A stretch of DNA of 64,000 nucleotides, taken from the NCBI GenBank assembly GCA_026417495.1, contig JAOADD010000018.1:1-64000 (forward strand). Direction: 5' to 3'. Positions 26,447 through 33,073 of this stretch are shown one piece after another. This DNA comes from Ignavibacteria bacterium (GTDB lineage Bacteria; Bacteroidota; Ignavibacteria; Tepidaquicellales; Tepidaquicellaceae). The notes under the pieces were generated by a model. The model searched no databases. It saw nothing but the letters and a program-made list of their open reading frames with translations, and was not told where the DNA came from. Both the position numbers and the translations under genes were made by a program. How positions within the stretch are numbered: the first letter of the stretch is position 1; each line of letters opens with the position of its first letter.

Positions 26447-27550
26447 TTATTTAACTAATATCATTTTCTTTGTCTCAACGAAATTATCAGTCCTTAACTG
26501 ATAGTAATAAATTCCACTTGCAAGTTTAGTACCATCAAATTCTACATTGTATGAACCTGCTTTTAAAAATCCATTATAACAAGTTGCGACTTCGTTTCCA
26601 ATCACATCAAATACTTTTAATATAACTTTTTCATCTTTGGGAATAGTAAAATGTATATTGGTGGTTGGGTTGAAGGGGTTTGGGAAATTCTGTTTCAACT
26701 CATAACCATTTACAGGTATTTCTTGCTTTTTTATTCCAATTGTTGTAAAGCTCGAAACCGCAACATCTAATGCATTTTGGACAGGTGCGTTAGAAGAATA
26801 TGGTGTACCCTGTTTATACACAAAAAATACAATGTCACAATTCATATCAACCACACTAGTGGGTAAAGTATAAGATAGTTGAGTTGAGAAAGATGTTCCC
26901 TGATTCCAGGCAGATGAAGTTAATAAAGTACCATAAGTACCATTAATAATACCTTTATTTACATGATGATGTACATAATCATTATGATAACCAACTGGTG
27001 TGCCACACACTTCATAGAAATATTGTGGATATACAATATTGCTTTCAATTAGTATCTGATTAATATAATAAGAACCAGCAGGTAAATCTGAAAGTGCAGT
27101 AACTACAACATTAGCAGAAATTTGACGTGTGGTTTGATTATATAATTTATTAGTTACATCAATTCTCACCCCAGGTTGATTTGATGATTGATAAACTACA
27201 TAGGAAAACCAGGATGAACGACTAATTATACCTGAAGTTCTACCAACAACACCAGTTGGATATGCAGAAAATCCCAATAATGAAATCATACCGGTACTAT
27301 AAGAAATCCAGGGGTCTCCACTACCTCCATGATAACCAACAACGACAGTATTAGGAAGTGCAGTCAATATGTTTCTTATAATAGCATGCCCACAAGGACA
27401 ATACCCACACCAAGTACCTGTGCAATATTCAAGAAGTACATTATTAGTATCAGCAGTTGTTGAAATATCAGAAGCATTTATTGTAGGTGGGAAAAGAAAA
27501 ACTACACTTGTGATTACGAAAATCACAATTAATAAAATAAAATTTTTCAT
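26447..27550 (-). CDS. T9SS-sorted Omp28-like thioredoxin-fold protein
   Basis: This 367-residue secreted protein has a signal peptide (about 1-27), then a thioredoxin-like part with C43, C48, C51 and C53 (EYCTGTWCGYCPCG), where CGYC is a redox-type CxxC. A beta-rich middle (Omp28-related) follows. The type-A sorting domain spans about 285-367: LKQNFPNPFNPTTNIHF, a GxYxVxFDGTxLASGIYYY pattern and the final KKMILVK. The protein should cross the outer membrane by T9SS and stay on the surface or be released. A redox or disulfide role is inferred only. Confidence 0.85.
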   Translation of the reverse strand: MKNFILLIVIFVITSVVFLFPPTINASDISTTADTNNVLLEYCTGTWCGYCPCGHAIIRNILTALPNTVVVGYHGGSGDPWISYSTGMISLLGFSAYPTGVVGRTSGIISRSSWFSYVVYQSSNQPGVRIDVTNKLYNQTTRQISANVVVTALSDLPAGSYYINQILIESNIVYPQYFYEVCGTPVGYHNDYVHHHVNKGIINGTYGTLLTSSAWNQGTSFSTQLSYTLPTSVVDMNCDIVFFVYKQGTPYSSNAPVQNALDVAVSSFTTIGIKKQEIPVNGYELKQNFPNPFNPTTNIHFTIPKDEKVILKVFDVIGNEVATCYNGFLKAGSYNVEFDGTKLASGIYYYQLRTDNFVETKKMILVK

Positions 27551-27592
27551 GTTGATTATTTTTATTTAAAAGAACATTTAAAATATATTATA

Positions 27593-27621
27593 AAATATAC
27601 ATTAATTTTTTAAAAAACAAT
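27593..27621 (-). promoter_or_regulatory. candidate promoter of the 26447-27550 gene
   Basis: On the minus strand TTG (27621-27619), an 18-nt spacer and TATATTTT (27600-27593) repeat the pattern seen upstream of the TetR and STAS genes. It ends 42 nt before the ATG. Confidence 0.3.
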
Positions 27622-27676
27622 AAAGACCTAAAAAGAAAAATTACATCATGATAAAATAACAAAATTTCATTAAAAG

Positions 27677-27709
27677 AATAAGCATAATGAAATTCTCATT
27701 ATGCTTATT
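27677..27709 (-). terminator. terminator of the beta-propeller gene at 27737
   Basis: AATAAGCATAATGA and its exact reverse complement form a 14-bp stem with a 5-nt loop, 27 bp after the stop. CTTTTAATG follows on the minus strand. Confidence 0.7.
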
Positions 27710-27736
27710 TAATAACAACCAAAGTAAAACAAAAAT

Positions 27737-29035
27737 TTACTTTATCAATATCATCTTTTTAGTGTCAGAAAAATATTCAGTATTAATTCTATAAAAATAT
27801 ACACCACCACTATAACGTGATGCATCCCACACTATTTGATGTTTTCCTTCAGAGTAAAAACCATTTGCTAATGTTTCTACTTCTTTTCCAAGAACATCAA
27901 ATATTATTAATTTCACAAACGACAACTTTGGGATTTCAAAACATATATTGGTTACAGGATTAAATGGGTTTGGATAATTTTGTAATAGTTTGAAATTATC
28001 AACATTAACATTATTACTTATACCAGTAAGAAAATACTGCACGCTATCAACCAATTTTACGACATAACCATACTTTGAAACTGCATAACCATAAATAATG
28101 CTATTTATATTTACAAAACTTAAATGTGTTAAACCATTAACACCTGTATTCTCAAGTCCAACCCAGTTTAAACCTCCATTAGTACTTCTTTTAATCGCAC
28201 CATTTTCACCTAATATGTAAACAATATTAGTACCTGAAATCCACTTAATATATGATTTCCCAACTAATCCTTCTCCAATGTTAAGGGGAACCCAAGTTGA
28301 GCCACCGTTAGTAGTTCTTGCAATATTTGGTAGTGAAGTTGATGTAGATGCAACCCCAGTAAGTTTATCATCTTTATAAGCAAATCCACATACAAGACTA
28401 CCAGATAAATTTAAATTTTGATTTACCCAATTTATTCCACCATTAGTTGTGACTCTTACTCTTGAAGCTCCATTGCTTAACCCAAACCCATAAAATAGTT
28501 GATCAATTAACATTAAAGAATTTTTCGCTGACCCACTATTTGCAACATTCGCTTGTTCAATCCAATTTAATCCGCCGTTTGTGGTTAAATATAATTTGTC
28601 AGCAAGAGCTGCTCCCACCAAAGGGTTCGTTGGAGAAAAAACTAAACTTGTAAAATATCCACCATTATTTCCTGTTTGTAATACAACTGTCCAATTTAAG
28701 CCAGCGTTTGTTGTTCTCAACAATTTTGCATTACTATTTAGTACTCCTTCAGCAACAAAAACTAGTTGAGGAGAAAGTGCATATATACAATTTATTTGTT
28801 TAGATATGCCTGATGTATTAACTTGAAACCACTCTTGCCCCCCATTTGTTGTCCTATATACTCTTGGTGTATCAGGACTGCCTCCAGCAATCCAAACATT
28901 GTAACTATCTACTACAGAAATAGACGGATCTTCACCAGGATTTGTAACCACACCTGCCATTATCCACCTTTGAGCATAGGACAGGCTTGTAATTCCTGTT
29001 AAAACCACAAGAATTAATAAAAGAACTTTTTTCAT
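27737..29035 (-). CDS. T9SS-sorted beta-propeller (BNR/Ycf48-like) protein
   Basis: The 432-residue secreted protein has a signal peptide (about 1-21, ending SYAQ). At least five repeats of the form RTTNGGxxWxxxN occur at spacings of about 45-50 residues, as in Ycf48/BNR propellers. A T9SS sorting domain (LLQNYPNPFNPVTNICF to KKMILIK) closes it. No catalytic residues are evident. Such propellers usually bind glycans or proteins outside the cell. AAGGAG at 29041-29046 supports the ATG at 29035. Confidence 0.85.
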   Translation of the reverse strand: MKKVLLLILVVLTGITSLSYAQRWIMAGVVTNPGEDPSISVVDSYNVWIAGGSPDTPRVYRTTNGGQEWFQVNTSGISKQINCIYALSPQLVFVAEGVLNSNAKLLRTTNAGLNWTVVLQTGNNGGYFTSLVFSPTNPLVGAALADKLYLTTNGGLNWIEQANVANSGSAKNSLMLIDQLFYGFGLSNGASRVRVTTNGGINWVNQNLNLSGSLVCGFAYKDDKLTGVASTSTSLPNIARTTNGGSTWVPLNIGEGLVGKSYIKWISGTNIVYILGENGAIKRSTNGGLNWVGLENTGVNGLTHLSFVNINSIIYGYAVSKYGYVVKLVDSVQYFLTGISNNVNVDNFKLLQNYPNPFNPVTNICFEIPKLSFVKLIIFDVLGKEVETLANGFYSEGKHQIVWDASRYSGGVYFYRINTEYFSDTKKMILIK

Positions 29036-29040
29036 TTTTA

Positions 29041-29046
29041 CTCCTT
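29041..29046 (-). promoter_or_regulatory. Shine-Dalgarno site of the beta-propeller gene
   Basis: AAGGAG on the minus strand, 5 nt before the ATG at 29035. Confidence 0.55.
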
Positions 29047-29201
29047 TTTATTTTAGGGCAAAGAAATTAAGGCAAATATTATTCCAAAATTCTTTATAAA
29101 AAAATTAGTAAAATAATAATTTTTCTTAATATTGTAGAATTTAATTGAGAAAAAAGTATCAAATTGAAACAAATGACTCTAAATTTTTTTAGAAATTTAC
29201 A

Positions 29202-29234
29202 TAAAAAAAGACTGCCATATAATCATGGCAGTCT
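29202..29234 (-). terminator. terminator of the T9SS cargo gene at 29265
   Basis: AGACTGCCAT and ATGGCAGTCT form a perfect 10-bp stem with a 6-nt loop. On the minus strand it is followed directly by seven Ts. It lies 30 bp after the stop at 29265. Confidence 0.88.
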
Positions 29235-29264
29235 ATAAATTTAAATTTACCTGATTCAGAATCT

Positions 29265-31289
29265 CTACTTTACAATAACCATTTTCTTTGTATCAGTATA
29301 AAATTCTGTTTGCAGTTTATAGAAGTATATTCCAGATGAATAATTTTGTGCATTAAGAATATATTCATAGCTACCAGGTTCAAGATGCTGATTAATTAGA
29401 GTCTCTATTTCTCTCCCTGTTAAGTCATAAATGATTAAGGTAACCTTCCCTTGTTTTGCAATAGAAAATTTAATATTAGTAGTTGGATTAAATGGATTAG
29501 GATAATTTTGTGCAAGCTCAAACTTATCAGGTACTTCAACGGAAATAGGTCTGATGCTTATTAATGCATTGTTTATACTAACAGCAAAAGTTCCCCATTG
29601 ACCTGATGTTGGAACAAAACTCGAGGAATTATCTGGTGCAGTCGCAAGATTTGAGCCTTGTCTGTTAAAAATAATATATGGAAATGTACTTCCACCATCT
29701 GTAGAAACTTTAACTACAAGTTTATCATTATCATAACCAGGTCTCCTTGCATAAGCCCAGTCAAATTTTATTGTATCGTTTAAATTAACATTGTTATACA
29801 CTTTTGATCTTAAAATATCTACTGTACCAACATTCTCAACATAAGAATACCAATTAATCCTAACGCTTCTTGATCCACCGAAAGAAGGACCATTTACAGC
29901 AGAATAAATATATCTCCAGAATGTATAATTTGAATCCATATTAATTAAAGTCCATTCTGCTGGTGGAACAGCATTTTCCATTGTTTCTACTTGAATGCCC
30001 CCTGTTACATTAAATGGTGAACTATTATTAAATGGTGTTGTACATGGGTTGATGTCTGATTCAGTAATTTTAGGAAGTTTTATATTATCCAAATAATAAT
30101 TCCTTGCTTTAGCACAATTAATTACTTCATGTGTGTACTCATCCTGCACAAATACTGCAGTATACATCATTGAGTCAACCCAGTAAGGTGCTCTTTTATA
30201 TTTAACTTCAATAGTATAATTACCAGGAGTGTAATTAATACTCATACCATCAACAGAAGGATACATTCTTCTAAATACATCATAGAAAATAGTTTCACCA
30301 TTTGAACCTGGAGGAGAAGCATAAGTAACTTTTCTTTCAATAGCAGCAACTCTCAATCTATAGTTAGAATAGGTTGAAAGAGGTGCGACAACTTGTAAAT
30401 TTATAGTGGCTTTAATTGTATCTCCTGGTAGTCTTGTATCAGTAACAGAAATTGAAATTGGTGATGGAATTGCCCTCCTATTGTTATAAGGAGTTAATAA
30501 ATTTGAAAGTGTTGAATAACCGCTAACTTGATTATGAACTCCATCAATTGTTAGAGTTGGTACTGCACTTATTGAATTGTAATGTGTTCTGACCCTTTGT
30601 TGTGCTCTGTTTGAATCATACATTGGATCTCCAGGTGAAGGCCACCATACATGATATTTAATAGCGACTACAGAATCAAATCTTTGTTGAATAAAAGCAT
30701 CAAGATAAGGATTCTGAGATGCGCAAGGACCACATGTAGTGCTTGTATGTGCTTCGAAAAGAACTCTACGATTGACCCCCGTATGATAAGTTGTTGGTTG
30801 AGTTAAAGTGTCATTATTTTTATTTTGATCAGATGCCCAATTTAGATAAACTTTGATATTTTTTGTTGTATTTAAATTAAATGTTATCGGATCAAATGTA
30901 ACTTGAACAGTTTGGCCAGAGCTAATAGAACTTACACTCTTTGTTGATGTATAAGATGTTTGATCTGTCATTGTTATGGTAGTCGCTGTAGAGGTACTAT
31001 ATCCCACATTTAAAATAGTAACCACAGGTGAAACGACGGTAGAAGTAACACCTGGTAGAAGATAATTCTTATCTTTTAAACTAAATCCATATATTGCTAA
31101 ATCGTTGCTTACACGAGTACCTATTGAGAAATTATCAAGCCATAGGTTATTACCATTACCATTAGTACCTTCGAATTGAACAACAATATTGTTAATCATT
31201 TGTGTATTTGACTTTTCATCACTCTTGAAAGTAAATGAAAAAACTACCCCCACCACAAATAAAAATGTGTAAAGAATTCTTTTTGCCAT
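29265..31289 (-). CDS. T9SS-sorted multidomain Omp28-like protein with CGPC thioredoxin motif
   Basis: This 674-residue secreted protein has a signal peptide (about 1-20). The last strands of an anchor-J/MAM-like beta sandwich (GTNGNGNNLWLDNFSI, 41-56) come next, then a CARDB-like domain (about 63-165). A thioredoxin-like domain holds C186/C189 (TTCGPCASQNP). An Omp28-type beta region, an anchor-J-like domain (about 425-585) and the sorting domain (AQNYPNPFNPTTNIKF to KKMVIVK) follow. The anchor-like domain near the C-terminus seems to lack its own final strands, while just such strands sit at the N-terminus. Redox function is inferred from CGPC alone. Confidence 0.83.
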   Translation of the reverse strand: MAKRILYTFLFVVGVVFSFTFKSDEKSNTQMINNIVVQFEGTNGNGNNLWLDNFSIGTRVSNDLAIYGFSLKDKNYLLPGVTSTVVSPVVTILNVGYSTSTATTITMTDQTSYTSTKSVSSISSGQTVQVTFDPITFNLNTTKNIKVYLNWASDQNKNNDTLTQPTTYHTGVNRRVLFEAHTSTTCGPCASQNPYLDAFIQQRFDSVVAIKYHVWWPSPGDPMYDSNRAQQRVRTHYNSISAVPTLTIDGVHNQVSGYSTLSNLLTPYNNRRAIPSPISISVTDTRLPGDTIKATINLQVVAPLSTYSNYRLRVAAIERKVTYASPPGSNGETIFYDVFRRMYPSVDGMSINYTPGNYTIEVKYKRAPYWVDSMMYTAVFVQDEYTHEVINCAKARNYYLDNIKLPKITESDINPCTTPFNNSSPFNVTGGIQVETMENAVPPAEWTLINMDSNYTFWRYIYSAVNGPSFGGSRSVRINWYSYVENVGTVDILRSKVYNNVNLNDTIKFDWAYARRPGYDNDKLVVKVSTDGGSTFPYIIFNRQGSNLATAPDNSSSFVPTSGQWGTFAVSINNALISIRPISVEVPDKFELAQNYPNPFNPTTNIKFSIAKQGKVTLIIYDLTGREIETLINQHLEPGSYEYILNAQNYSSGIYFYKLQTEFYTDTKKMVIVK

Positions 31290-31342
31290 TCTTGATTTAT
31301 TAATTTATTAAAAGATATTTTAAGTATTAAGAAAACAACTAA

Positions 31343-33073
31343 TCACTTGATAAATATCATTTTCCTGATAGCAGAATAATTCTTTGTCTCCAATTTATAG
31401 AAATAAATTCCAGAAGACAAATTGTAATTTGATGGGATAAAAATAATTCGGTAAGCACCTGCTTTCCTGAATTCATTAACTAATACAACAATTTCTTTTC
31501 CTGTCAAATCATAAACACTCAACTTAATATTTTCATCTTTTGCAATTGAAAAATCAATTGTTGTGGAAGGATTAAAAGGATTGGGGTAATTCTGTTGTAA
31601 TAAATATGTATTCAGTAATTGTTCTTCACCTGAAACATTTGTAGGTGTTGTAACTGTAAACCTAAAATTACCTGATGGTGCTGTCAATGGTTTTGTTACT
31701 GTTCTGTTATTTAGACTAGCTGTTGCTGATATGTAATAATATACTTTCGTTCCTAAAGGTTGCGCAGGAATATATGCTCTGAATGTATCTCCTACAGCTG
31801 ACATATTTAAAACATTAAAGCCTAAGTTGGTATCAATAGTCCAAAAAACCTTAGCATTTGATATTCCACCTTTTGTTTTTATATATGCTTTTACTTCATA
31901 ATTTGGCATTGTAGTAGTTGCTAACCTAATAGAAGGGTGAGAAATAAAAATTGGATTATATACTCCAACTTCCTTACTGATACAATGAATTGCACCACTT
32001 GCAGGAATAATAGAGTTAGAATTAATACCTACTACTCTATATCCTGGCATTGCTTCACGGTATATTCTCAAAGCGGTTGTATCCTGCGGGAAATTATAAA
32101 TTGGAACAATAACTGTTTTGTTTACAATAAGTGAATTTGTATAAGTAAAATAATAAGAATTTGGTGGATATTGCCCATTTGAATTAGGAGGCATTGGAAT
32201 TCTAACGACTTTCCACGGTCTATTAAAGCAAGTTTGGAAATTCGTAGTAACATATCTTAAATTAGAATCGATTTGTGGACCATCAGCAACACCAACGGGA
32301 TATTGTCCTACAAGTAAAGTCTCTTCATCTAACAATTTCATATGCATATCAATATGGTGAATTCCATCATAAGGAAGAGTATTCATTTTAATATAAGTCT
32401 TAATTCCCATATATTTTCTAAACATTGTGTCAATCTCAGCTTCAGTTTTATTTGGATTCTCATTCAAAATCAATTTAGAAGAAAATGCTATACCATGTCC
32501 ATCTACCATAAAATTACCACCCGTTGCTACTATCCTATTTGGTTCTTGGGTCATTTGATGTAAAAGTACATTAAAATAATTAGCAACATAAACAGGTATT
32601 AAATCATCCTGTGGTCTTGGCCTATTATATACCCAATCAATCATACGCATACTATCAATATTATTTGTATATATAGTCCATGCACCATAGTCTCTACACC
32701 AAACGGAATTAAATGATGCATATAAGAATCTAAGATTTACCAGTGGAACCCCATTTGAGGTTAAATAAGATTTAACAGAATTAGAATCAGAACATACAAT
32801 TAATACGAGACACTCATCCTGTATATAATCAACCATTTGAGCAAGTATTGGTAGATAAGAAGTCCAAGTAATTTGCACAGCTTGAAATTCTTCCCATTCA
32901 GCCATTGTCCTAACAGGAGAGTAAGGAGGATTATAATCATCAGTTTGGTAGACTGGAGGGGAATAATTTCTCCACAATTCTTTTTCCTTTTCAGTCATAT
33001 ATTTTGGCAAGTCCTGAGAATTGAGATTCGTGCAAATAAATAATACAAAAATTAGAGAGATTAATTTCTTCAT
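31343..33073 (-). CDS. T9SS-sorted agmatine/peptidylarginine-deiminase family enzyme
   Basis: This 576-residue secreted protein has a signal peptide (about 1-19), a deiminase domain (about 55-370), an Ig-like domain and a T9SS sorting domain (LQQNYPNPFNPSTTIDF to RKMIFIK). The catalytic set of the bacterial (Porphyromonas-type) enzyme is in place: D128 in WCRDYG, the paired arginines R151/R153 in NRPRPQDD, H240 and D242 in HHIDMH, N313 in YTNSL, and C364 in GAIHC. Such enzymes hydrolyse a guanidine to give a ureido group and ammonia, from C-terminal peptidyl arginine or agmatine. Which of these is the substrate cannot be decided from sequence. It lies next to three other T9SS cargo genes. Confidence 0.87.
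   Translation of the reverse strand: MKKLISLIFVLFICTNLNSQDLPKYMTEKEKELWRNYSPPVYQTDDYNPPYSPVRTMAEWEEFQAVQITWTSYLPILAQMVDYIQDECLVLIVCSDSNSVKSYLTSNGVPLVNLRFLYASFNSVWCRDYGAWTIYTNNIDSMRMIDWVYNRPRPQDDLIPVYVANYFNVLLHQMTQEPNRIVATGGNFMVDGHGIAFSSKLILNENPNKTEAEIDTMFRKYMGIKTYIKMNTLPYDGIHHIDMHMKLLDEETLLVGQYPVGVADGPQIDSNLRYVTTNFQTCFNRPWKVVRIPMPPNSNGQYPPNSYYFTYTNSLIVNKTVIVPIYNFPQDTTALRIYREAMPGYRVVGINSNSIIPASGAIHCISKEVGVYNPIFISHPSIRLATTTMPNYEVKAYIKTKGGISNAKVFWTIDTNLGFNVLNMSAVGDTFRAYIPAQPLGTKVYYYISATASLNNRTVTKPLTAPSGNFRFTVTTPTNVSGEEQLLNTYLLQQNYPNPFNPSTTIDFSIAKDENIKLSVYDLTGKEIVVLVNEFRKAGAYRIIFIPSNYNLSSGIYFYKLETKNYSAIRKMIFIK

What the first reader, a model, noticed from the sequence alone, without database searches (positions are those of the whole stretch)
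31343..33073. Exported deiminase with a full Porphyromonas-type catalytic set in a non-pathogen-like genome
The protein has a signal peptide, a T9SS sorting domain and every key position of the bacterial peptidylarginine/agmatine deiminase fold: D128, R151/R153, H240, D242, N313 and C364. Agmatine deiminases are normally cytosolic. Export with the paired arginines that contact a peptide C-terminus in the Porphyromonas gingivalis enzyme points to citrullination of extracellular peptides, or to scavenging of guanidine nitrogen.
Basis: partly seen in the sequence, partly recalled or inferred. Interest (0 to 1): 0.7.

Follow-up and report, generated by a model that had tools for sequence, protein, structure and literature searches.

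The report
Exported sister of Porphyromonas citrullinating enzyme
This free-living bacterium, like hundreds of its relatives, makes an exported enzyme that is the closest sister group to the citrullinating enzyme thought to be unique to a gum-disease germ; it keeps the whole catalytic core but lacks the one residue said to restrict that enzyme to protein ends.

Summary
ORF 31343-33073 (-) encodes 576 aa: apparent signal peptide, Porphyromonas-type deiminase domain, Ig-like domain, T9SS tail. All named catalytic positions are right. The closest solved relative by sequence and predicted fold is P. gingivalis PPAD over both domains (E 1e-49; Z 44.7, 411 residues), not agmatine deiminase. Trees place it in a group sister to the PPAD clade; grouping it with agmatine deiminases is rejected (AU p = 0.003). 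'Full Porphyromonas-type set' overstates it: PPAD Tyr233, which caps the substrate carboxylate and was proposed to block internal arginines, is Gly237 here and is Tyr in none of 94 family members. Nor is it a one-off: at least 492 loci in GTDB species genomes encode relatives, with T9SS tails in 45 of 46 scanned, across Ignavibacteria, Calditrichota, Chlorobi-like and Bacteroidia MAGs. Most likely it deiminates arginines with a free carboxylate outside the cell; activity and substrate are inferred, not shown. Loss of Tyr233 leaves endodeimination open. This genome has ornithine carbamoyltransferase and carbamate kinase without arginine deiminase or argininosuccinate synthase, but co-occurrence elsewhere is weak. 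New variant of a known kind; moderate interest.

The parts
31343..33073 (-). gene for the exported PPAD-like deiminase (576 aa)
33014..33073 (-). signal peptide, residues 1-20 (approximate)
   Evidence: read by eye from the translation; no signal-peptide program was run
31970..32908 (-). guanidino-group modifying catalytic domain (PF04371), residues about 56-368
31637..31957 (-). Ig-like domain as in PPAD, residues about 373-479
   Evidence: PPAD match extends to residue 480; confident beta-rich stretch in the model; structural alignment to PPAD through model residues 457-459
31355..31588 (-). T9SS type A sorting domain, residues 496-573
32690..32692 (-). codon of D128 (guanidinium-binding Asp; PPAD D130)
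32615..32623 (-). codons of R151-P-R153 (carboxylate-binding pair; PPAD R152/R154)
32363..32365 (-). codon of G237 at the PPAD Tyr233 position
32348..32356 (-). codons of H240-I-D242 (catalytic His and Asp; PPAD H236/D238)
32135..32137 (-). codon of N313 (PPAD N297)
31982..31984 (-). codon of C364 (nucleophile; PPAD C351)

Best explanation
An extracellular or surface-attached arginine deiminase of the PPAD type. It would cross the inner membrane by its signal peptide and the outer membrane by the type IX system, which reads the C-terminal sorting domain. Outside, C364 attacks the guanidinium carbon of an arginine held by D128 and D242, with H240 as acid/base and N313 completing the triad, giving citrulline and ammonia. 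R151 and R153 hold the substrate's alpha-carboxylate or main chain, so the likely substrates are C-terminal arginines of peptides left by proteolysis, and possibly free arginine. Shown: domains, residues, tree position, predicted fold. Inferred: export, activity, substrate and benefit.
For: The best PDB sequences are all PPAD, E 1e-49 over residues 47-480; agmatine deiminases and similar score 1e-21 or weaker. The predicted model (pLDDT mostly above 90 between model residues 30 and 460; the model begins at residue 19) best matches PPAD over catalytic plus Ig-like domain (Z 44.7, 411 residues, rmsd 2.9), then agmatine deiminases (Z up to 39.0, about 315 residues, catalytic domain). Catalytic residues and R151/R153 are invariant in 94 family members; agmatine deiminases lack the R-x-R pair. 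Family plus PPAD clade plus one odd protein has 99.2/100 support; grouping with agmatine deiminases is rejected, AU p 0.003. T9SS tail in 45 of 46 members; SprA translocon gene in the same genome. Mechanism and residue roles: PMC4487231, PMC4893104.
Against: No activity data for any member. PPAD Tyr233 is absent, and the channel residues C239, R252, H258 of PPAD are M243, G256, V262 here, so kinetics and specificity may differ. No conserved neighbour gene points to a substrate.
Confidence: 0.6

Rival explanations
1. A bacterial endo-peptidylarginine deiminase: with Gly, Gln, Glu or Val instead of Tyr233 the pocket mouth is open and internal arginines of proteins can enter, as in vertebrate PADs where this position is Ser or Thr.
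For: PPAD Y233 is replaced by G, Q, E, V, N, D, A, H or P across the family in a loop of unchanged length. PMC4487231 attributes the exclusion of C-terminally extended substrates to clashes with Y233 and R152, and notes S468/T468 in PAD4/PAD2.
Against: R151, the other part of the proposed clash, is kept. A Tyr two residues upstream (Y235) is present in 88 of 94 members and could take over the capping role. The PPAD-clade proteins outside Porphyromonas also lack Tyr233 and their specificity is unknown.
Confidence: 0.2
2. An exported free-arginine (or small arginine derivative) deiminase feeding a split arginine deiminase route: citrulline made outside is imported and split by cytosolic ornithine carbamoyltransferase and carbamate kinase for ATP, ammonia and ornithine.
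For: The genome has adjacent carbamate kinase and ornithine carbamoyltransferase genes but no arginine deiminase family hit and no argininosuccinate synthase hit. PPAD can use free arginine (PMC4893104).
Against: The four family-positive genomes of the sister family in the sample lack carbamate kinase, and only 13 of 22 family-positive genomes have it, in a class where that enzyme is common anyway (counted by hand). No citrulline transporter was sought.
Confidence: 0.12
3. An exported agmatine deiminase, as weak matches to agmatine deiminase models would suggest.
For: Weak matches to agmatine deiminase models in all members; same superfamily fold.
Against: 69.5 bits against a cut-off of 381.8; the carboxylate-binding arginines, absent from the agmatine deiminases compared, are invariant here; that tree placement is rejected.
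Confidence: 0.04

Closest known systems
Porphyromonas gingivalis peptidylarginine deiminase (PPAD; PDB 4YT9, 5AK7)
   Same: Catalytic propeller followed by Ig-like domain, with T9SS tail (PPAD's tail per PMC4487231); Cys-His-Asn triad, two guanidinium-binding Asp, Trp and the R-x-R carboxylate pair
   Different: About 33% identity; Tyr233 is Gly; Cys239, Arg252, His258 differ; Thr346 has no counterpart; separate clade
Agmatine deiminase (AguA; PDB 2JER, 3HVM, 6NIB)
   Same: Propeller fold and catalytic residues
   Different: Single-domain proteins without the Ig-like domain or T9SS tail; no R-x-R pair; separate in trees
Vertebrate PADs (PAD4 and others)
   Same: Fold of the catalytic domain (Z about 24), two main-chain-binding arginines, and no Tyr at the 233 position
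   Different: About 13% identity, calcium-dependent, different extra domains

Membership tests
PPAD (Porphyromonas-type exported peptidylarginine deiminase) | Cys-His-Asn triad plus two Asp and Trp of the active site | tested here: met
PPAD (Porphyromonas-type exported peptidylarginine deiminase) | R152 and R154 carboxylate-binding pair | tested here: met
   R151, R153, invariant in 94 members
PPAD (Porphyromonas-type exported peptidylarginine deiminase) | Tyr233 on the Michaelis loop, third carboxylate ligand | tested here: not met
   G237; Tyr in 0 of 94 family members
PPAD (Porphyromonas-type exported peptidylarginine deiminase) | Catalytic domain followed by Ig-like domain | tested here: met
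PPAD (Porphyromonas-type exported peptidylarginine deiminase) | T9SS C-terminal sorting domain | tested here: met
PPAD (Porphyromonas-type exported peptidylarginine deiminase) | Groups within the PPAD clade in a tree | tested here: not met
   Sister to the PPAD clade, not inside it
PPAD (Porphyromonas-type exported peptidylarginine deiminase) | Deiminates C-terminal arginine of peptides | not testable with these tools
   needs an enzyme assay
Agmatine deiminase (TIGR03380) | Score above the equivalog cut-off | tested here: not met
   69.5 bits against 381.8
Agmatine deiminase (TIGR03380) | Placement among agmatine deiminases in a tree | tested here: not met
   AU p 0.003

The most novel reading that the evidence does not exclude
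A widespread family of bacterial exported endo-peptidylarginine deiminases: enzymes that citrullinate internal arginines of extracellular proteins in free-living Bacteroidota-type bacteria.
Probability: 0.18. Interest if true: 0.75.

Novelty: new variant of a known kind. Interest (0 to 1): 0.45.

Why it matters
The literature read here calls PPAD unique among microbes (PMC4487231) or unique to pathogenic Porphyromonas (PMC6147916). A sister family with the same architecture and active site in hundreds of mostly environmental species means exported citrullination chemistry is probably far more common than oral disease, and it offers natural variants at the position proposed to set exo versus endo specificity.

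Tried and rejected
Gene neighbourhood: 80 loci clustered; recurrent neighbours are housekeeping genes (polA, a UDP-glucose 4-epimerase-like gene) or other T9SS cargo, restricted to close relatives, so no partner was found. Gingipain-like partner: five C25 hits in the genome, but the three classified look most like PorU sortases (catalytic pieces only, below that model's cut-off), so an Arg-specific protease partner is not shown; the other two were not classified (one search failed on strand). Carbamate kinase co-occurrence: weak. Promoter and terminator scan: no promoter excess. Literature searches found no description of the family, but the library is open-access only. A first AU run failed on its input file and was repeated.

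Full report
What is there. The ORF at 31343-33073 on the minus strand is intact, 576 aa. Pfam finds the Porphyromonas-type deiminase domain at 56-368 and a T9SS sorting tail at 496-573. NCBIfam gives only weak agmatine deiminase scores, 69.5 bits against a cut-off of 381.8. The first 20 residues look like a signal peptide by eye; no predictor was available. It is the only PF04371 protein in this genome.

Closest solved proteins. The five best PDB sequences are P. gingivalis PPAD or its mutants, E about 1e-48 to 1e-49, aligned over residues 46/47-480, that is, catalytic plus Ig-like domain; agmatine deiminases and putative PADs follow at 1e-21 or weaker and end near residue 368. A predicted model from 52 sequences (mean pLDDT 85; mostly above 90 between model residues 30 and 460; the model begins at residue 19) gives PPAD first in Foldseek (E 1e-39 to 1e-41) and in VIA-align (Z 43.8-44.7, 408-412 residues, rmsd about 2.9), then agmatine deiminases and relatives (Z up to 39.0, about 315 residues), then vertebrate PADs (Z about 24).

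Active site. In 94 family members W125, D128, R151, R153, G186, H240, D242, N313 and C364 never vary. Roles of these residues are taken from PMC4487231 and PMC4893104. The first paper's 'W217' appears to be W127, since its stated equivalents lie three residues before the Asp, and the second paper names Trp127; this is my reading.

The exception. PPAD Y233 binds the substrate carboxylate and, with R152, is held to exclude substrates extended past the arginine; PAD4 and PAD2 have Ser and Thr there (PMC4487231). Here it is G237, and in the family G 47, Q 17, E 9, V 9, N 4, D 3, A 3, H 1, P 1, never Tyr. The loop has the same length. Y235, two residues upstream, is Tyr in 88 of 94 and Phe in 5; it aligns with PPAD G231. 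Whether it replaces Y233 is unknown. PPAD-clade proteins found outside Porphyromonas have Ala at this position.

Phylogeny. With 64 sequences the family is one clade next to the PPAD clade, and agmatine deiminases lie on the other side of a supported split. A second set of 31, with the E. faecalis and A. thaliana agmatine deiminases added, gives 96.7/99 for that split and 99.2/100 for family plus PPAD clade plus one odd protein (L200). Monophyly of the family itself is weak in that smaller set (87.7/43), though 95.5/95 in the larger. Forcing the family together with agmatine deiminases is rejected (AU p 0.0033), as is separating it from PPAD (p 0.00014).

Distribution. Matches well beyond the tail occur in 41 of 44 genomes of the organism's own and sister families, counting complete, split and contig-cut copies (counted by hand). 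In an even sample of the phylum, 22 of 392 genomes have a close family member (E below 1e-150). Of 46 full-length members scanned, 45 have the T9SS tail. The nearest named genome is Ignavibacteria bacterium isolate Ch128a (CP054675.1).

Function. Export by T9SS is likely: tail present, SprA gene in the genome, and three further tailed genes directly downstream. The chemistry, arginine to citrulline plus ammonia, follows from the conserved set. The carboxylate pair favours C-terminal-arginine peptides or free arginine. The benefit is speculative. This genome has carbamate kinase next to ornithine carbamoyltransferase, no arginine deiminase hit and no argininosuccinate synthase hit, so citrulline could be catabolised but not turned back to arginine by that route. 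But the four family-positive genomes of the sister family in the sample lack carbamate kinase and overall 13 of 22 have it (counted by hand), so this is not a general link. No conserved neighbour gene was found.

Novelty. Architecture and predicted chemistry are those of PPAD, so this is a variant of a known kind. What is new against the papers read is the breadth and the Tyr233 difference: PPAD is described as unique (abstracts of PMC4487231 and PMC6147916). Absence of a description in an open-access library is not proof that the family is undescribed; databases may already label its members 'agmatine deiminase family protein' (my recollection, not tested).

Noticed in passing
L181-L184 (genomes G191, G183, G202, G116): Proteins 39-44% identical to P. 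gingivalis PPAD and in its clade, from another family of the phylum; three are 880-933 aa, and they have Ala at the Tyr233 position.
   Followed up: partly
L143, L146, L149, L150: A divergent clade of deiminase-like proteins (688-724 aa) with Gly or Pro in place of the first carboxylate Arg and a DGGTGHID-type motif; the substrate may differ.
   Followed up: partly
L208:27-3013 (G000:C2): Carbamate kinase, ornithine carbamoyltransferase and an aspartate carbamoyltransferase-like gene in a row, in a genome with no hit to arginine deiminase or argininosuccinate synthase.
   Followed up: partly
26447-33073: Four consecutive minus-strand genes each end in a T9SS sorting tail (Omp28-like, YCF48-like, a protein with a CGPC motif, and the deiminase).
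   Followed up: partly
L074:6001-7392 and G456:C7:90135-91508: Family member with one in-frame stop (TAG) inside the conserved region; pseudogene, sequencing error or recoding not resolved.
   Followed up: no
L034 (G012:C9): A second copy of the deiminase in one genome of the same family, 62% identical, whose C-terminus ends differently from the usual T9SS tail.
   Followed up: no
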